A DNA stretch of 64,000 nt from Tillus elongatus (taxonomy: Eukaryota; Arthropoda; Insecta; Coleoptera; Cleridae): the NCBI GenBank assembly GCA_964006375.1, contig OZ023267.1, forward strand, positions 15,635,471 through 15,699,470. The letters are read 5' to 3'. Below the pieces are notes generated by a model. The model had not been told where the DNA came from. It made no database searches and saw only the letters and a list, made by a program, of their open reading frames with translations. Shown piece by piece: positions 1,788 to 56,509 of the stretch (the stretch's first letter is position 1; every line of letters starts with the position of its first letter). The position numbers and the translations under genes are program-made.

Positions 1788-1909
1788 TATGTAGGGCTTA
1801 TAGAATTTTCCATTCTCTGATGACGCTGACGTTGTCAGCGAAACGATCGTAAGGTCTTTGAAATATGTGTTATGATGATTTGGGATCTCCAAGTGTACTT
1901 ATGTAGGGC
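1788..1909 (+). mobile_element. 102-bp hammerhead-bearing insert with 10-bp target duplication
   Basis: The sequence tatgtagggc occurs at 1788-1797 and again at 1900-1909. The 102 bp between them interrupt a PLE endonuclease frame exactly at YVG. The insert contains a hammerhead-like core and is related to the PLE end pieces at 2610-2765, 15870-16030 and 53120-53545. The simplest reading is insertion of a short PLE-end-derived element with target-site duplication. A partial tandem rearrangement of PLE copies is the alternative. Confidence 0.65.
1814..1854 (+). ncRNA. Hammerhead-like ribozyme motif in the 102-bp insert
   Basis: Core elements seen: CTGATGA at 1817-1823; a 6-bp stem II (GCTGAC/GTCAGC at 1825-1830 and 1834-1839) with GTT loop; GAAA at 1840-1843; and a very short helix III (AC/GT around a GATC loop) ending in the GUA cleavage triplet at 1849-1851. 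Short stem I pairing (TCT with AGG) is possible. One base, C1824, lies between the first core strand and stem II, which is not canonical. Cleavage activity is unknown. Confidence 0.6.
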
Positions 1910-2329: not shown

Positions 2330-2609
2330 CGTCGTTAAAAATTTGAACAGATATGTTTCGGTGAATAGAGTAGGTCTAGTTCTGTGTAGTACATTGTTTG
2401 AACTGTTATCTTAATAATCAGTATGCCCTTCTCAGAAGGAATATTTGATATCCACACACATTTTTACAAAAGCAGGGATGCGATTTTAATTACAATAATT
2501 TAAGGCTCAACAGTGGGGATCTGTCTGTATACCATCGTAGGTGATCCTGTTCGCAACTGCTTGGCAACTAATATAAAAATAGTGGTTTTAGTGTTTATTT
2601 GCTTAGTCT

Positions 2610-2765
2610 ATTTGTTCCTCTGATGACGATAACTTTGTCGGAAAAGGGATCGTCAGGTCTAAAAACTGTAGTGTCATGAATTGGGTTCTTCAAATTGTAC
2701 TTATCAGTGCTCATCACAGGTTTCAATCTTCACTCACTACAAGACCTTATTTTGTCGCCATTCAT
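2610..2765 (+). mobile_element. PLE end piece (pLTR-like) with hammerhead-like core
   Basis: About 155 bp shared in order with 15870-16030 (minus), 53120-53285 (minus) and 53420-53545 (plus). The shared blocks are a CTGATGA motif, a region around gggttcttcaa, then gtacttatcagtgctcatca and an aatcttcact end. The decayed copy at 15870-16030 lies immediately upstream of PLE N-terminal coding sequence, so the block is read as a PLE 5' pseudo-LTR. The 270 bp before it (2330-2600) show nothing recognisable. Confidence 0.55.
2617..2657 (+). ncRNA. Hammerhead-like ribozyme motif in PLE end piece
   Basis: CTGATGA at 2620-2626, stem II with a C-G closing pair plus GATAA/TTGTC (one wobble), GAAA at 2641-2644, and GTC at 2652-2654 as cleavage triplet. 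Stem I can form from CCT at 2617-2619 and AGG at 2655-2657. The junction between GAAA and GTC (AGGGATC) is irregular compared with the other copies. Confidence 0.5.
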
Positions 2766-2892
2766 TCGCGTAACCTACGGTATTTTGAAGAGGGGAGGTA
2801 TTTCCAAAACAGTAAGAAATCTAAAAAGAATGCTTGAAAAAACCAAATCTCTACCAGTCTAATAAAATTATTTATTCGTCATGCTAATTATG

Positions 2893-3045
2893 GGATTAAA
2901 TGAGTGGTGGACGTGGCGCCACCTAGTTGCTGAACCAAGTAGTATGTTGTCACGTCAGCTCCAAATAACACAAAGTGTTAAAAAAATAGAGTCTGTATAC
3001 AACTAACTAACAATTTAGAAAATTGTCAGCCCTGGCCCATTGGTT
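2893..3045 (-). repeat. Inverted partial unit of the hammerhead tandem array
   Basis: This segment is the reverse complement of the second half of the array units (the block from ctgacaatt through aacactttgtgtta to caccactcac). It faces unit 1 head-on across a short spacer, so 2893-3045 and about 3105-3235 form a large imperfect inverted repeat. Confidence 0.85.
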
Positions 3046-3312
3046 CTAATTGTTGTGAGAATGCATCTAGCCTTACACTTTGTCCCTATATTGGGGTAGA
3101 AATGGGCCAGGGCTGACAATTTTCTAAATTGTTAGTTAGTTGTATACCGTCTCTATTTTTAACACTTTGTGTTATTTGGAGCTGGAGTGACAACATATTA
3201 CTTGGTTCCGCAACTAAGTGGCGGCACGTTCACCACTCACTTAGTGTTGAAAGACTGGCTATACTATAGCCGTATTACTTTAGATGCATTTTTGCTACAA
3301 TTAGTATGCCGT

Positions 3313-3352
3313 ACTGAAGAGCTCTAATGAGAGCGAAACAAGTCTACGGTTT
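3313..3352 (+). ncRNA. Hammerhead-type motif, unit 1
   Basis: CTGAAGA at 3314-3320, stem II GCTCT/AGAGC with AATG loop, and GAAA at 3335-3338 are all intact. Helix III is damaged: ACAAG replaces ACCGG, so only two pairs with CGGT remain. Confidence 0.6.
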
Positions 3353-3622
3353 TAATTGTTGCGAGAATACATCTAGCATTACATACTTTGTCCCTATATT
3401 GGGGTAGAAATGGGCCAGGGCTGACAATTTTCTAAATTGTTAGTTAGTTGTATAGAGTCTCTATTTTTTTAACACTTTGTGTTATTTGGAGCTGGCGTGA
3501 CAACATACTATTTGGTTCCGCAACTAGGTGGCGTCACGTTCACCACTCACTTAGTGTTGGAAGGCTGGCTATACTATAGCCGTATTACTTTAGATGAATT
3601 TTTGCTACAATTAGTATGCCGT

Positions 3623-3662
3623 ACTGAAGAGCTCTAATGAGAGCGAAACCGGTCTACGGTTT
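3623..3662 (+). ncRNA. Hammerhead-type motif, unit 2 (complete core)
   Basis: CTGAAGA at 3624-3630 is followed directly by a 5-bp stem II (GCTCT/AGAGC, AATG loop), GAAA at 3645-3648, and a 4-bp helix III (ACCG/CGGT, loop GTCTA). The cleavage triplet is GTT ending at 3661. All invariant core bases are present and no extra base separates the core from stem II. Stem I is weak next to the core, but ACAATTA upstream and TAATTGT downstream can pair further out. Confidence 0.7.
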
Positions 3663-3924
3663 TAATTGTTGCTAAAATACATCTAGCCTTACATACTTTG
3701 TCCCTATATTGGGGTAGAAATGGGCCAGGGCTGACAATTATCTAAATTGTTAGTTAACAGTCTCTTTTTTTTAACACTTTGTGTTATTTGGAGCTGGCGT
3801 GACAACATACTACTTGGTTCCGCAACTAGGTGGCGGCACGTTCACCACTCACTTAGTGTTCAAAGGCTGGCTATACTATAGCCGTATTACTTTAGATGCA
3901 TTTTTGCTACAATTAGTGTGCCGT

Positions 3925-3964
3925 ACTGAAGTGCGCTAATGAGAGCGAAACCGGTCTACTGTTC
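3925..3964 (+). ncRNA. Hammerhead-type motif, unit 3 (decayed)
   Basis: The core reads CTGAAGT with a disturbed stem II (GCGCT opposite AGAGC) and ACTGTT in place of ACGGTT. It is recognisable only by alignment with the other units and is probably inactive. Confidence 0.5.
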
Positions 3965-4233
3965 TAATTGTTGCTAGAATGTATCTAGACTTACATACTT
4001 TGTCGCGATATTGGGGTAGAAATGGACCATGGCTGACAATTTTCTAAATTGTTAGTTAGTTGTATACAGTCTCTATTTTTTAACACTTTGTGTTATTTGG
4101 AGCTGGCGTGACAACATACTACTTGGTTCCGCAACTAGATGGCGGCACGTCCACCCCTCACTTAGTGTTGAAAGGCTGGCTATACTATAGCCGTGTTATT
4201 TTTGGTGCATTTTTGCTGCAATTAGTATGTCGT

Positions 4234-4273
4234 ACTGACGAGCTCTAATGAGAGCGAAACCGGTCTACGGTTC
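4234..4273 (+). ncRNA. Hammerhead-type motif, unit 4 (complete core)
   Basis: CTGACGA at 4235-4241 fits the CUGANGA consensus. Stem II GCTCT/AGAGC, GAAA at 4256-4259, helix III ACCG/CGGT and a GTT triplet ending at 4272 are all present, as in unit 2. Confidence 0.7.
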
Positions 4274-4302
4274 TAATTGTTGCGAGAATGCATCTAGCCT
4301 TA

Positions 4303-5154
4303 CCTAATTATGGTATGTTTGCAAACTCTGCGGTTTTACAAAAAAGTTAAACTCTGATTAAGTTAAACATCTTTCACTGATCCATGTGTATATAATGCCG
4401 CAATTGTCGGTATCTGCATTGCGTATTGTTGTATAATCAAGAGATGTGACTTATTTATAAGCTACTCCACTTAGTTCCTTGACGTTTGCTCTCGCTTGTT
4501 GCCAGGACTGGACATATTGTAGCCATTGTATTATGACTCAGACCTGAACATTTCATAAACACGCCGATTTTAATTATTTAAACAATGCACTAATTAAAAA
4601 CGACGAGGGTTTCAGGTTTAGTCGAGTAAACTTAGAAACGGTTGATTAATACAATAGCGAAATTAATTTTTAAACCTGTCTGCGAAAAACCGTCTGGCCT
4701 TTCTATTGCTTAATTCAATGAGGAGTTATTTGTTTACTTAATTGAAAATCTATTCATAGCAATGTGATTATATTTTTAAATACTGGTGTGAGCAACATAC
4801 AAAAGGTTCTATTAATTATCCAACGAAGGTAAAAATATAACATATAAATTTTTAAAATATCAGTTAATTATTAGCGAATTTTGTGAAAAAATATATTGCT
4901 ATTAAAATGCTCGCTGACGAAATCGTGAATTTTTGTAAAAAGGGGGTAAATTAGAAACCTTAGAATCTATATTATATCCAATTTAGGTAACACAGGATTT
5001 ACTTTGATTATCTATAAAAACACATACCGTGTTCGCTCTTATTAGAGCTTGCCTATGTACTGCACTAATAACACTCACCATACAACACATGCAAATATAC
5101 AGTGTGATGATAAAGTTGTGAACATTACACATAAATGCGTTATTTATTTTTTTC
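4303..5154. other. Unassigned AT-rich sequence
   Basis: Nothing recognisable apart from low-complexity A/T runs. Short open frames here match no motif I know. Confidence 0.6.
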
Positions 5155-5544: not shown

Positions 5545-5675
5545 CATTTCATTTTTAGTGAATTTTCGTTAAGAAAATTCACTAATAGAGAGGTATCGAT
5601 GGTAAAACTTTTGGAAAATTTTTTTAAATAAGCGCGAATTTGCGCCTCTAGAACCCATACCCAAGGTCGGTTTTG

Positions 5676-5763
<88 letters not shown>

Positions 5764-5860
5764 CCATCTGATAACTCAAAAATTATTTGACCAATTTCGA
5801 CCAAATTTGGGAATTACCTTGATTGTGTTAATGGCTTGGATGAGTTCGTAGATGGGCACT
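5545..5860. mobile_element. TIR-element family fragment with (TA)n core
   Basis: Shares the blocks tagagaggtatcgatggt, the tctagaacccata stretch, the (TA)n site, ataactcaaaa and ggcttggatgagtt with the full copy at 24581-25332. The terminal inverted repeats are missing. A small hairpin tagtgaattttc/gaaaattcacta lies at the start (about 5558-5586). Confidence 0.65.
5679..5755. repeat. (TA)n microsatellite in TIR-element fragment
   Basis: About 77 bp of pure TA, at the position where other members of the TIR family also carry TA tracts. Confidence 0.95.
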
Positions 5861-24788: not shown

Positions 24789-24847
24789 AGTCTCACCATC
24801 GATACCTCTCTATGAATCACTAATAGAGAGGTATCGATGGTGAGACT
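24789..24847. repeat. Perfect 25-bp hairpin inside the TIR element
   Basis: Arms at 24789-24813 and 24823-24847 are exact reverse complements with a 9-nt loop. Other family copies keep only one arm. Confidence 0.95.
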
Positions 24848-24923
24848 TGGCAAATTTTTTTTCCAATAAGCGCAAACTAGGACCTCTAGAACCCATATCC
24901 GGGGACAGTTTCAATTTTTATGT

Positions 24924-24927
<4 letters not shown>

Positions 24928-25010
<83 letters not shown>
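24928..25010. repeat. (TA)n microsatellite in TIR element
   Basis: About 83 bp of TA at the family's fixed internal site. Confidence 0.97.
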
Positions 25011-25013
<3 letters not shown>

Positions 25014-25332
25014 CAACTGATAACTCAAAAGATAATTAACCGATTTGGATGAAACTCGGCAAGTACCTTTATTTTATTAAGGGCTTGGATGAGTTAGTTA
25101 TCCAGGAAAATCGGACAAGGTTTTCCGGAAAAATTTTGAGTTTTCTTTCGAAAAAAATTTTTCTCCGAAAATTACCAAGCTATTTTAATTAAATTTGGTG
25201 GATATGTTGCCTTGGGAAAGACCTTAGTACAAACCAAAAGTTAATCTTCTAAGTTTGTAGAAAATTTAGTTATTCAAATTTGAAACATTTAATGACAATT
25301 CACTACCATAACGCACTTGCTGCGTCCCGAAC

Positions 25333-28245: not shown

Positions 28246-29110
<865 letters not shown>

Positions 29111-29967
29111 TAAAAGCAAAAACTATTTGACGTCATGTGTAATATGTAGATAGGTATCTTCGTTTAGTTCAGTTATGAGCAATAGAAAAAAATTCACACA
29201 TTGATCTCTGAGAGTAGTCAATGCATCGGGGAAAATGAGTCAGGAGTCCTTTTGCCAGACTCCACTTGCACAAAAGCATTTGCGCGAGTCTACATGACAT
29301 ACGGGTGAATTAGACGTCACAATTATACACTTTTTGAGGCTAGGTTATCAAAAAACGTTCTCTCCTTGCACCAAAGTAAGATATATTCCAATCAGATTGA
29401 CAACAAATCAAGTACATCGATTCAAAATACTTAATATTTTGTATTCAAGAGCATATTAAATAGAAAACTATGAATACGAATACCTTTTAGCTACATAAGT
29501 GCAATTGTAGCGGCTCAATTACTACACATTTGATAATTAGACCCAGAATCACTGTTGGCATGTGGGTATGGGTATCCGATTTCGAGAAATGCACGTGACT
29601 CCTTTTGCCCACTACATTCGTTTTGCCCGACTCTCCCCTGCCTATCTTTTTGCGAATATACCGATACAATGTTTAGACAATTGTTGTGGTTTGAAATTTT
29701 TTCATGGAAACAAACTATCCATGTAAAAAATATATAGACGTATTCAACTGACCTGACCTGACAAGTTAGAGGGTGGCAAGATAGTGAACTAGCTTTGTGA
29801 GGTTTGTGAGTGTCAACAGTTTTAGTATTGTTCATAAGATCGTCGACTGGGTTCACCAGAGGAAGCAACGCTGACAAAAACGAATAGACATATATTAGAA
29901 GGTGAACGTGAATATTAAGTTGCCTCTTTTCAATCTTCATGAAGTTAGGGTAGTAGTTTTTTTTCTT
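29111..29967. other. Unassigned sequence
   Basis: A 141-codon minus frame at 29515-29940 has no recognisable domain and is treated as chance. No repeat partner was noticed. Confidence 0.5.
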
Positions 29968-32101: not shown

Positions 32102-32140
32102 CTGTAACCGGTTTCGCTGCTTGGCAACATCCTCAGACAG
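32102..32140 (-). ncRNA. Hammerhead-type ribozyme motif downstream of PLE endonuclease
   Basis: Minus strand 5'-3': stem I CTGT (32140-32137); CTGAGGA (32136-32130); one extra T; stem II GTTGC/GCAGC with CAA loop; GAAA (32115-32112); a minimal helix III (ACCGGT); T17 at 32106; then ACAG, which pairs perfectly with the first CTGT. All invariant core bases are present. PLE elements are known to carry hammerheads. Activity here is untested. Confidence 0.65.
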
Positions 32141-36036: not shown

Positions 36037-36300
36037 TCTTTATTAAGTGAGTGGTAGACACGAAGCAACGTGCCGTCACCTAGTTGCGGAACCAAGTAGT
36101 ATGTTGTCACGCCAGCTCCATATAACACAAAGTGTTAAAAAGTAGAGACTGTATACAACCAACTAACAATTTCGTAAATTGTCAGCCCTGACCCATTTCT
36201 ACCCTAATATAGGGACAAAGTATGGAAGGCTAGATGTATTCTCACCACAATTAGAACCGTAGACCGGTTTCGCTCTAATTAGAGATCTTCAATACGGCAG
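36037..36300 (-). repeat. Lone retrozyme-like unit (minus strand)
   Basis: The reverse complement of one array unit of 3081-4302 (caccactcac block, aacactttgtgtta, gggtagaaatggg, tctacggttctaatt). The hammerhead-like core at about 36252-36292 reads TTGAAGA with the stem II side TCTCT opposite AGAGC and an intact GAAACCGG...CGGTT. The C3 change should abolish cleavage. It shows that the unit is dispersed and not confined to the array. Confidence 0.75.
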
Positions 36301-36306
36301 TGTACC

Positions 36307-36535
36307 GTAGGCATGGTAGTGTCCTTCTAAACATAAAATACTTTTACTTCTGGTCTATCATTGTATTCCTTAAATATCATAGCCATATAGTACATTTTAG
36401 AAACTTGTAGGCACGGTAGTATCCTTCTAAACATAAAATACTTCTATGTTTGGTTGTTCGTTATACATCGTGATTATCACAGCCATAAGATGTTCGTTTA
36501 GGAAGTTGTAGGCACGGTAATGCCCTTCGTCTATA
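36307..36535. repeat. ~100-bp tandem repeat, 2.3 copies
   Basis: Units start at 36307, 36407 and 36508 with the motif gtaggca(t/c)ggta, then ccttctaaacataaaatact and later a catagccata block. It directly abuts the lone retrozyme-like unit. Confidence 0.8.
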
Positions 36536-37188: not shown

Positions 37189-37199
37189 AGGTACAGTGA

Positions 37200-38096
37200 C
37201 CCACACAAACAGACATCACTATACCTAAACACTCACTACACCCACATACACACAAAATGGCCGCATACAGATACTTAATAAACAGAATGATAAATGTACC
37301 ACTTCATAACGACGAACGAGAAAAGGAGTACAACATCATAATACAAATAGCATCAAGAAATGGATACAACAAGAAAACAATAGAAAAGCTAGTAAAGCAA
37401 ATCAAAAACAAACAAATCAACAAAACCGAAAACAAAACACCAGAAACAAACACAAAATACACCACATTTACTTATAACCACCACATCAAAAAAATAACAC
37501 AAACACTCAAACAATATGACTTAAAAATGAGCTACAAAACCCATAACAAAATAATAAACAAAATAAATAAAAAACAAGAAAACAACCCACATGAATTAAA
37601 CGGAATATATCAAATAGAATGTAACACATGCAAAAAAAATATAGGAATGACAAAAAAATCAATAGAAACAAGATTCAAGGAACATATAACAGCATTAGAT
37701 AAAATCCACATACCTAGCTACAAATCAAACGTAGCTACACACATTCACAACACAAAACACCAAAAACCAGACATCACTCAATTACAACTAATGAAACATG
37801 TTAAAGACCACAAAAAAATGGAAATCTTGGAACAATACTACATTCAACAAACAAACAATAGGAAACAATTAATGCCAGAACAAAGCCAGGTACAAACATT
37901 TAAACAAAACTTAATAAAGGCCATACAAATAGACAAATTATCAAACCACAGTGAACAAGACATGAGACCGATACACACGACACAGCCCGAAGGCACAACT
38001 AATCAGAGAACAGGAAACCGACCAATAGAAGCTCACGGCGCATGCGCCACGTACAATCTCAGACGTAGACCAGACAGGAGCGATAACAATCAGTAG
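37200..38096 (+). CDS. PLE RT-end/GIY-YIG endonuclease frame, intact but 5' truncated
   Basis: The frame is open from 37200 (PTQTDITIPKHSLHPHTHKM, the PLE segment after the RT palm) to the stop at 38094-38096. The ATG at 37257 lies inside the conserved HKMAAYR motif, so it is not a true start. The Lys/Asn-rich linker (residues 25-110 from that ATG) leads to NGIYQIECNTCKKNIGMTKK and SIETRFKEH. This is GIY-YIG with the Cys pair intact and YIG changed to NIG. HIHNTKHQKP and MEILEQYYI follow. The composition is very A-rich on the sense strand. No internal stops across about 298 codons suggests recent insertion. It cannot act alone without the RT palm. Confidence 0.8.
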   Translation, partial: PTQTDITIPKHSLHPHTHKMAAYRYLINRMINVPLHNDEREKEYNIIIQIASRNGYNKKTIEKLVKQIKNKQINKTENKTPETNTKYTTFTYNHHIKKITQTLKQYDLKMSYKTHNKIINKINKKQENNPHELNGIYQIECNTCKKNIGMTKKSIETRFKEHITALDKIHIPSYKSNVATHIHNTKHQKPDITQLQLMKHVKDHKKMEILEQYYIQQTNNRKQLMPEQSQVQTFKQNLIKAIQIDKLSNHSEQDMRPIHTTQPEGTTNQRTGNRPIEAHGACATYNLRRRPDRSDNNQ

Positions 38097-38140
38097 CGTG
38101 CTGATGATGAACTGGGACGGTTCGAAACTGCAGTCCGCGC
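38096..38140 (+). ncRNA. Hammerhead ribozyme (type I-like) after the PLE stop codon
   Basis: The best-formed copy in the window. Stem I is GCGTG (38096-38100) with CGCGC (38136-38140). CTGATGA (38101-38107) is followed by one extra T, stem II GAAC/GTTC (38109-38112, 38120-38123) with a 7-nt loop, GAAA (38124-38127), a 2-bp helix III (AC/GT around TGCA) and the GTC cleavage triplet ending at 38135. Stem I closes with one G-U pair. The motif begins on the last base of the stop codon. Short helix III is typical of PLE hammerheads. Confidence 0.75.
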
Positions 38141-38181
38141 AAACCAATAAGAAATCACAAACGTACAGCAAACAAATAAAT

Positions 38182-38189
<8 letters not shown>

Positions 38190-38255
<66 letters not shown>
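38190..38255. repeat. (TA)n microsatellite
   Basis: About 66 bp of TA, followed directly by a TIR-family segment. Confidence 0.97.
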
Positions 38256-38260
<5 letters not shown>

Positions 38261-38395
38261 TATATACTGAAACTGACCCAGGATACGTGTTCTAGGGGGC
38301 CCAGTTCGAGTTAATTTAAAGAAATTTTTTCAAAAGTCGCAACCTCCATATTAGTGAATTTCTTTTAAGAACATTCTCTAAAAGAATTAAATTCA
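38256..38395. mobile_element. TIR-element family fragment
   Basis: Shares aaactgacccaggata, ttctaggggg, the caaaagtcg...attagtgaatt block and the family hairpin with 51280-51430 and 28330. Right half only. Confidence 0.6.

Positions 38396-51196: not shown

Positions 51197-51278
<82 letters not shown>
51197..51278. repeat. (TA)n microsatellite
   Basis: About 82 bp, directly before the family block aaactgaccttggata. Confidence 0.97.
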
Positions 51279-51280
<2 letters not shown>

Positions 51281-51484
51281 CATATAAAAATCGAAACTGA
51301 CCTTGGATATAGGTTCTAGGGGGTCTAGTTCACGCTCATTTGTAGAAATTTTTTTCAAAATTGGTGAATCGGTATCTCCTAATTAGTGTTTTTTTTAAAG
51401 AAAATTTTCTAAAAAGAGATATTTGATATGAAAAACATCTTTATGAAAATTCACTACCATAACACACTTGCTGCGTCCAGACTT

Positions 51485-53119: not shown

Positions 53120-53545
53120 AAAATATCAGTGGCGTACCATAAACTTAGAACACTGTTAGAACCTGTGTGTTAGAATAAAGAGTCACTATTAAGTACACTT
53201 GGAAAACTCAAATTACCACAACACATTTCAAAACCTAACGATTGTTTCACTAACCAAGTTAGCGACATCAGATGGTTAAAAATGCTAAACGTTTGGCGAC
53301 TACAACTCTGTTTGTATTCTGTTCAGGTACTCGGCCTTAGACGCTCGAGGGTGGTACAAACAAATAAACTTTTACTGCTTATTTTCCGGAAAATTCCTCT
53401 TTTTTAAATAATTGTAGGTTGTCTTTTTCTTGCTCACTGAAGCGATCGTCAGATTTTTTCAAATGCGTTATGGTGAATTGAATTCTTCACGTGTACTAAT
53501 CGGTACTCATCACAACCTCCAATCTTTACTTAGTGGGGGTGAGTA
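53120..53545. mobile_element. Inverted pair of PLE end pieces
   Basis: The piece at 53120-53285 is on the minus strand: its core reads CTGATGT, stem II GCTAAC/GTTAG(T), GAAAC, then the tgttgtggt and ccaagtgtacttaat blocks. A second piece at 53420-53545 is on the plus strand (cactgaagcgatcgtcag, then gtgtactaatcggtactcat). They are arranged head to head around about 135 bp of other sequence. Both cores are mutated: A9 to U in the first, and the second lacks most of the core. Confidence 0.55.
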
Positions 53546-55189: not shown

Positions 55190-55867
<678 letters not shown>

Positions 55868-56258: not shown

Positions 56259-56509
56259 GTAGACGGGTCCTGCCATTTCATGCATTGCGAGAGCGGCATT
56301 GCCAGGCGGTGCTTATTGCTCTAACGGCCTGCCTGACCTGACCTTCCTGACCTGCCTTGCCGGACGGTGCTTATTGCTCTAGGTGCCTGCCTGAACTGAC
56401 CTTCCTGACCTACAAGGTAGGTCAGGAAGGTCAGTTCAGGCAGGCCCCTAGAGCAATAAGCACCGTGCGGAAATGCCGCTCTTGCGAAGCATGGACGGGA
56501 TCCGTCTAC
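56259..56509. mobile_element. TTAA-flanked foldback element (251 bp)
   Basis: Bounded by TTAA at 56255-56258 and 56510-56513. The ends are inverted repeats (gtagacgggtcc and its near complement). The centre near 56414 is a long palindrome (cctgacctac/gtaggtcagg outward), and the left arm contains a duplicated segment (ggtgcttattgctcta...ttcctgacct twice). GC-rich, unlike its surroundings. TTAA duplication is typical of piggyBac-type MITEs, but the ends do not show a piggyBac signature I can confirm. Confidence 0.7.

What the first reader, a model, noticed from the sequence alone, without database searches (positions are those of the whole stretch)
3081..4302. Tandem ~305-bp repeat array with a hammerhead-type core in each unit: a candidate retrozyme
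Each of four head-to-tail units has CTGANGA (or a mutated form), a 5-bp stem II, GAAA, a short helix III and a GTT triplet on the plus strand. Units 2 and 4 keep every invariant core base. Metazoan retrozymes, described as small circRNA-producing repeats with hammerheads and probably mobilised by PLE machinery, have this size and layout, and PLE copies with their own hammerheads are all around it. Stem I next to the core is poor, so activity is not certain.
Basis: partly seen in the sequence, partly recalled or inferred. Interest (0 to 1): 0.88.

Follow-up and report, generated by a model that had tools for sequence, protein, structure and literature searches.

The report
Ribozyme element copied from two starts
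A short non-coding jumping element, carrying a predicted self-cutting RNA, is scattered through this (probably insect) genome, and most of the copies examined begin at two fixed points of its repeat unit and run in opposite directions between two copies of a short duplicated target, which suggests that it is likely copied from a ring-shaped RNA by the enzyme of another transposon family.

Summary
The array is real and is one insertion: 13-bp target duplication (12/13 match), a 145-bp inverted piece, then 4.1 head-to-tail units, then the duplication again (2884-4316). In the window's own 1.72-Gb genome the element is a dispersed family. In 39 fetched loci plus the window, 60 of 67 tract 3' ends lie at two fixed unit positions (A, about 38; B, about 211). 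Of 25 head-to-head insertions 22 are one A plus one B, three are B plus another position, none AA or BB; 22 of 25 have 9-16-bp target duplications (control 4 of 500). Units within a locus look mostly like star-like copies of one monomer. An intact Penelope-like element (PLE) of the same genome shows the same two-start, one-each anatomy (19 of 20 resolved). The best reading is a retrozyme reverse-transcribed from a circular RNA, primed from both target strands by a PLE-type enzyme. Ribozyme activity, the RNA circle and the enzyme's identity are untested.

The parts
2884..2896 (.). left copy of the target-site duplication, CTAATTATGGGAT (right copy differs at one base)
   Evidence: 23 of 20000 random flank pairs score as well
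2897..3041 (-). inverted tract: cDNA that begins at start site B (unit position 209 in this copy) next to the left duplication
3042..4303 (+). direct tract of 4.1 units; its 5' end lies 3 nt inside the predicted hammerhead cut, its 3' end is start site A (unit position 38)
3281..3376 (+). hammerhead 1 (cut 3344/3345); helix III damaged (ACAAGU)
3591..3686 (+). hammerhead 2 (cut 3654/3655); all core bases and ACCGGU intact
3893..3988 (+). hammerhead 3 (cut 3956/3957); A9 changed to T, one stem II mismatch
4202..4297 (+). hammerhead 4 (cut 4265/4266); all core bases and ACCGGU intact
4304..4316 (.). right copy of the target-site duplication, CTAATTATGGTAT
36044..36299 (-). second, partial copy of the family (a subfamily with a 10-bp insert); 3' end at site B; core has C3 changed
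37199..38184 (+). PLE remnant (end of RT, GIY-YIG endonuclease, hammerhead-like motif at 38101), 95.7% identical to a 2815-bp PLE unit of this genome
32056..33476 (-). second PLE remnant (RT and endonuclease with stops; hammerhead-like motif at 32136 with ACCGGT)

Best explanation
The array is one insertion of a non-autonomous retrozyme whose RNA is predicted to cut itself with paired hammerheads and likely to be closed into a circle, and whose two cDNA strands begin at two fixed unit positions (A and B), one next to each copy of a short target duplication, which would be the work of a Penelope-type reverse transcriptase supplied in trans. Shown from sequence: the hammerhead core, palindromic helix III and long stem I; the dispersed family; head-to-head tracts; outer ends at A and B, one of each in 22 of 25; duplications of mostly 12-13 bp; star-like units; the same anatomy in an intact PLE of the genome. 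Inferred: a staggered cut leaves two 3' ends; one primes at A and the other at B on the same folded RNA, in which A and B are predicted to face each other across one helix; each enzyme runs round the circle, up to 5.4 + 7.4 units in one locus; the two cDNA ends are joined (1-9 nt of overlap in 17 of 25). Untested: cleavage, the circle, and which PLE acts.
For: Starts: 67 tract 3' ends in 39 loci + window: 27 at A, 33 at B, 7 other. Pairing: 25 head-to-head insertions: 22 AB, 3 B+other, 0 AA, 0 BB, 0 tail-to-tail; p about 2e-7 for 22 of 22 if ends were chosen independently. Duplications: 22 of 25 score 7 or more, lengths 9-16, most often 12 and 13, against 4 of 500 mismatched locus pairs. Second sample, another subfamily, 29 of 30 loci used: starts 15 A, 20 B, 16 other; head-to-head 7 AB, 4 B+other, 1 A+other, 1 other+other, 1 BB; duplications in 6 of 14, control 1 of 182. 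Same template: mean distance within tract 0.037, between the two tracts of a locus 0.034, between loci 0.067; 718 singleton sites against 116 shared by a subset; window array 38 singletons, 3 two-two splits. Fold: A and B in one helix of the circular fold, 92.5% of cells paired against 27-48% slid, pair 33-220 CG/TG/TA. PLE: intact 2815-bp family; of 22 head-to-head pairs that I picked from the list, 20 were resolved: 19 are 56+94, one 56+56. The Anolis PLE protein cuts and extends both strands and starts at two sites inside the RNA (PMC11167929, abstract and main text).
Against: No RNA data: cleavage, circles and protein were not observed. Rfam matches stay below threshold. Stops near the hammerhead cut are enriched in the first sample (14 of 66 within 10 nt, p 1e-4; width chosen afterwards) but not in the second (3 of 51). 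Between-tract distance is below that to the nearest other locus in only 12 of 23 loci, so 'same RNA' rests on the averages and on young loci such as L025. The other 14 of the 39 insertions tested show no duplication at the same threshold. In the A/B helix one pair, 37-216, is standard in only 71 of 140 units, and the half 39-43/209-213 has a competing pairing. The resolved PLE family sits in TA repeats, the retrozyme mostly does not, so that PLE is probably not the helper; of four loci of the second PLE family one shows two different starts with a 13-bp duplication and one the same start twice. Both samples were picked by similarity to the window.
Confidence: 0.74

Rival explanations
1. The same two-site, two-strand priming, but on a linear multimeric transcript of an existing array instead of a circle.
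For: Several tracts stop at or near the hammerhead cut after whole rounds (3.09-3.12 units from A, 3.68 from B), as run-off from a cut multimer would; multimeric transcripts of such repeats are known (PMC7229834, section 15 read).
Against: Units of a locus look like copies of one monomer (718 singleton against 116 subset-shared sites), which needs a homogeneous source array; up to 12.7 units in one insertion (L012).
Confidence: 0.25
2. Twin priming by a LINE enzyme (L1-like), since LINE reverse transcriptases are common in the window.
For: LINE-type RVT_1 reading frames are abundant nearby; L1 twin priming also gives a 5' inversion between target duplications (recalled).
Against: Both start sites are fixed and complementary; I saw no poly(A) tail at the junctions printed; an intact PLE of the same genome has the same one-each pattern. 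LINE insertions of this genome were not examined.
Confidence: 0.07
3. Head-to-head arms arise by self-priming or snap-back of one cDNA, the model proposed for rotifer PLEs (PMC3846280, passages read).
For: Explains an inverted arm without a second primer.
Against: Snap-back joins a unit position to nearly the same position; here the two inner ends differ by more than 20 nt in 24 of 25 head-to-head insertions (positions listed, counted by eye). It also does not predict two different outer start sites.
Confidence: 0.05
4. Ordinary satellite DNA spread by unequal exchange or DNA circles.
For: Tandem units; a cave-cricket satellite with a hammerhead is known (PMC2837043, passages).
Against: Fixed outer ends, duplications and head-to-head tracts in dispersed short arrays.
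Confidence: 0.03

Closest known systems
Metazoan non-LTR retrozymes (PMC7229834: abstract, first part of the results, sections 14 and 15, and discussion read)
   Same: Tandem units of 150-450 bp with a type I hammerhead, GC below 50%, target duplications longer than 4 bp, highly self-paired RNA, PLEs in the same genome; insects are named there among the animals with such repeats.
   Different: Loopless 6-nt palindromic helix III in a probable insect (that paper reports efficient single hammerheads for most invertebrates and dimers for amphibians). Two-start, head-to-head insertions are not described in the parts that I read.
Penelope-like elements, Anolis PAc and rotifer Penelope (PMC11167929 abstract and main text; PMC3846280 passages; PMC7761336 passages)
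   Same: Both target strands primed and two internal start sites (Anolis), inverted head-to-head arm, optional tail on one side and short target duplications (rotifer), minimal hammerheads that lack helix III.
   Different: The retrozyme has no reading frame; its two sites are about 173 nt apart in sequence (38 nt in the PLE here) and meet only in the predicted fold. The strict one-each rule is not stated in the passages read.
Dolichopoda pDo500 satellite (PMC2837043, passages)
   Same: Insect repeat with a hammerhead and a proposed double-hammerhead form.
   Different: Its helix III folds within one molecule; described as satellite DNA, not as insertions.

Membership tests
Metazoan retrozyme | Tandem non-coding units of about 150-450 bp carrying a type I hammerhead | tested here: met
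   no frame of 120 aa or more in 2897-4303
Metazoan retrozyme | GC below 50% and target duplications longer than 4 bp | tested here: met
   GC 0.40-0.41; 13 bp here, most often 12-13 in the family
Metazoan retrozyme | Dispersed multicopy family | tested here: met
Metazoan retrozyme | Highly self-paired monomer RNA | tested here: met
   66-70% paired as circles, z -3.8 to -5.5 against mononucleotide shuffles (three units)
Metazoan retrozyme | Self-cleavage and circular RNA in tissue | not testable with these tools
   no RNA data or bench work
Rfam hammerhead family | Score above the curated gathering threshold | tested here: not met
   best 27.8 bits against 52
Hammerhead ribozyme (core definition recalled) | All invariant core bases with stems I and II | tested here: met
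   units 2 and 4 of the window's four; 114 of 172 fully covered family units have an intact core with stem II, 88 of these also ACCGGT
Penelope-like element | Own RT and GIY-YIG reading frame | tested here: not met
   so it is not a PLE, although its insertions look like those of a PLE
PLE-type insertion | Two internal start sites, both strands primed, head-to-head | tested here: met
   as a footprint in DNA; priming itself was not observed

The most novel reading that the evidence does not exclude
PLEs and retrozymes share a distinct mode of retrotransposition: obligate two-site, two-strand-primed rolling-circle reverse transcription. The two halves of an enzyme dimer each take one of two start sites held side by side in one folded circular RNA, each is primed by one 3' end of the same staggered cut, and both read round and round the same ribozyme-made circle; the retrozyme lives by imitating this two-site landmark with a helix instead of a tail.
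Probability: 0.5. Interest if true: 0.92.

Novelty: new variant of a known kind. Interest (0 to 1): 0.82.

Why it matters
How animal retrozymes get into DNA is an open question; PLEs were proposed from co-occurrence, tandem copies and shared ribozymes (PMC7229834 discussion). Here the copies themselves carry marks of the process: two fixed start sites used one per target strand, short duplications and multimers of one monomer, matched by an intact PLE in the same genome. This makes the proposal testable with one purified protein and one RNA, and it offers an explanation for the head-to-head arms and one-sided tail of PLEs.

Tried and rejected
Read the finding's GTT triplet first and accepted it in early work (scripts, notes); the Infernal alignment and the later scans showed GUC. 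Looked for PLE genes with Pfam in 30 of the 44 frames: nine frames hit RVT_1 (one below its cut-off); the five that I translated look LINE-type; PLEs were found by motif, homologues and tblastn instead. Pol III boxes: no B box and only two-mismatch A-box-like strings. Exact 21-mer in viral contigs: none. Covariation in the four window hammerheads: none. One search had an error in my duplication script and is not used; one search replaces it. Mapping the second sample on the first consensus broke at a 10-bp insert and was redone. The 2815-bp PLE as direct helper: doubtful because all 20 resolved copies sit in TA repeats. The cut-site enrichment of cDNA stops did not replicate. Rows left out: pieces of 31 bp or less or under 85% identity (one in L009, three in L016) and ends at the border of a fetched stretch (L011), L011, L122 (overlaps L109), two of 22 PLE pairs that ran off their windows. 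Not every head-to-head pair on the list was examined. Three further single PLE ends (L099-L101) fell at 94, 56 and 56.

Full report
What is in the window. Tandem Repeats Finder gives a 310-bp period, 4.1 copies, 3042-4303. Units cut at a shared start measure 306, 310, 302 and 309 bp and are 91.4-95.4% identical. A 145-bp inverted piece of the same unit lies directly upstream, 2897-3041. The whole, inverted piece plus array, is flanked by CTAATTATGGGAT (2884-2896) and CTAATTATGGTAT (4304-4316), 12 of 13 bases equal; 23 of 20000 random flank pairs did as well. It therefore looks like one insertion and not a satellite block.

The ribozyme. cmscan places Rfam HH9 on units 4, 2 and 1 at 27.8, 26.0 and 21.8 bits (E 2e-4, 7.5e-4, 0.017 for this stretch), below the gathering score of 52; unit 3 has no match. 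Its alignment pairs ACC with GGU as helix III in units 4 and 2 and puts the cut after GGUC. With that reading stem I is GCCGUA/UACGGU next to the core, followed by a small internal loop and 23 more pairs; 94.9% of cells pair against 32-46% with the partner slid. The predicted cuts are 3344/3345, 3654/3655, 3956/3957 and 4265/4266. Helix III is the palindrome ACCGGU without a loop, so it should form only between two hammerheads; of six unlike pairs cofolded, one (3 with 4) shows such a duplex. Units 2 and 4 keep all core bases; unit 1 has ACAAGU; unit 3 has A9 changed. The other three carry one extra base after A9: 38101 (+), 32136 (-, also ACCGGT) and 1817 (+).

PLEs nearby. Frame 37200-38096 matches P0126 (45% identity; RVT_1 and PF26215), which by its motifs (recalled) is a PLE protein, and the hammerhead-like motif 38101 follows it. 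A second remnant runs from 33476 to about 32056 on the minus strand. The five frames with Pfam RVT_1 hits that I translated look LINE-type. For one of them the best named hits are from psyllids at 49-50% (the top three hits are unnamed), so an insect is likely.

The family in its genome. The genome search was busy at first and answered: the window lies in a 1.72-Gb genome with 30 contigs; the 40 best-scored of 9085 first-look candidates gave 84 matches. The 39 clusters of that list other than the window were fetched with flanks and mapped, with the window, on a 310-bp consensus that starts at the predicted cut. In 25 of 40 a minus tract is followed by a plus tract. Of 67 tract 3' ends, 27 lie within 8 nt of position 38 (A), 33 within 8 nt of 212 (B) and 7 elsewhere. 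Read with the duplications, A is about 36-40 and B about 209-214 (by eye). Of the 25 head-to-head insertions 22 are one A and one B and three are B with another position; there is no AA, BB or tail-to-tail case. Independent choice would give 22 of 22 with p about 2e-7. Target duplications score 7 or more in 22 of these 25, with lengths 9-16, most often 12 and 13, against 4 of 500 mismatched locus pairs; the 14 other insertions tested have none at this threshold. The geometry, duplication on both sides and cDNA starts at both outer ends, is that of a staggered cut whose two 3' ends each prime one cDNA.

One template. Mean distance is 0.037 within tracts (319 pairs), 0.034 between the two tracts of a locus (144) and 0.067 between loci (19735). 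In the young locus L025 units differ by 0.003-0.004 and lie 0.020 from the nearest other locus. Among sites covered by four or more units of one locus, 718 differ in a single unit, 143 are founder changes in all units, and 116 are shared by a subset. In the window array 38 sites are singletons and three split the units two to two. Repeated copying of one monomer, as round a circle, is the simplest reading. In only 12 of 23 loci is the between-tract distance below that to the nearest other locus, so single loci are often too old to decide.

Where the two starts lie in the RNA. In the circular fold of the consensus (-105.2 kcal/mol) positions 31-37 pair with 216-222 and 39-43 with 209-213, so A and B face each other in one helix next to the base of stem I. 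The second half competes with a pairing to 179-186 (its own probability is about 0.4-0.45 at most positions). On 246 unit pieces 92.5% of cells of this helix pair (27-48% slid); pair 33-220 occurs as CG 61, TG 46, TA 16, while pair 37-216 is standard in only 71 of 140.

Replication and a failure. A second sample, 30 loci found with the other window copy (a subfamily of about 320 bp; the window copy itself is one of them), gave 15 A, 20 B and 16 other ends in the 29 loci used; some of the others are breaks inside arrays. Head-to-head cases: 7 AB, 4 B+other, 1 A+other, 1 other+other, 1 BB, with duplications in 6 of 14 (control 1 of 182). The 5' ends of cDNAs cluster at the hammerhead cut in the first sample (14 of 66 within 10 nt, p 1e-4; 11 within 5 nt, the best 11-nt window of the unit, where 99% of 2000 random sets reach at most 10) but not in the second (3 of 51). 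I do not count this as established.

The autonomous PLE. A search with P0126 listed 100 matches, the best-scored of 39600 candidates; by my count 33 of the 100 lie in an open frame of exactly 867 aa, many in tandem at 2815 bp and many head-to-head. Mapped on one real unit, outer ends fall at positions 56 and 94, the first blurred by AT-rich flanks. Of 22 head-to-head pairs that I picked from the list, 20 were resolved: 19 are 56+94 and one is 56+56. The 38 nt between the sites match in size the 30-40-bp tail that PMC11167929 explains by two start sites (abstract and main text read). All 20 lie in TA repeats, so their duplications cannot be read; most retrozyme copies do not lie in TA repeats, so this family is probably not the helper. 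The family of the second window remnant (50 matches from the 40 best-scored of 7469 candidates) also has two start sites about 41-43 nt apart. Of four loci sampled, read by eye, one has two different starts and the 13-bp duplication AATAAAAATAGGC, one appears to have the same start twice without a duplication, one lies in a TA repeat with one end at another position, and in one an end was missed.

What is known. Retrozymes of this kind, PLEs as suspected helpers, dimeric hammerheads in amphibians and PLEs, and head-to-head PLE arms with a tail on one side are all in print (PMC7229834, PMC7761336, PMC3846280, PMC11167929; parts read as listed under Closest known systems). My searches of the held library for PLE with twin priming, PLE with head-to-head, retrozyme or PLE with head-to-head, twin priming or rolling-circle reverse transcription and hammerhead elements with target duplication and inverted arms listed no paper that shows this anatomy in retrozymes, judged by titles, starts of abstracts and the passages that I read; most subscription journals are not held. 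I therefore call it a new variant of a known kind, with a mechanism that is well marked in the DNA and untested at the bench.

Noticed in passing
window 1797-1886(+), 2600-2734(+), 16020-15894(-), 53288-53184(-), 53434-53530(+): A second short repeat family of about 95-135 bp with a degenerate hammerhead-like core (palindrome ACGATCGT as helix III in the best copy). The first copy interrupts the GIY-YIG part of a PLE fragment (1740-1796 and 1891-1947), by eye with a 10-bp duplication TATGTAGGGC, so it looks like a separate mobile mini-element.
   Followed up: partly
genome G000, 2815-bp PLE family: All 20 resolved head-to-head copies of the intact PLE sit in TA dinucleotide repeats, which suggests a microsatellite-preferring endonuclease.
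   Followed up: partly
window 5552-5849, 24817-25098, 28786-29115, 38173-38384, 51204-51415, 55584-55757: TA/AT runs share about 100-200 bp of similar flank at several places: a dispersed element family built around a TA repeat.
   Followed up: no
window 56374-56456: A long near-perfect hairpin that gives Rfam microRNA and mraW matches, probably false.
   Followed up: no
window 5064-5026(-): A possible degraded relative of the hammerhead core (nhmmer E 0.045).
   Followed up: no
window 36307-36519: A 100-bp repeat of two copies directly beside the 36044-36299 retrozyme copy.
   Followed up: no
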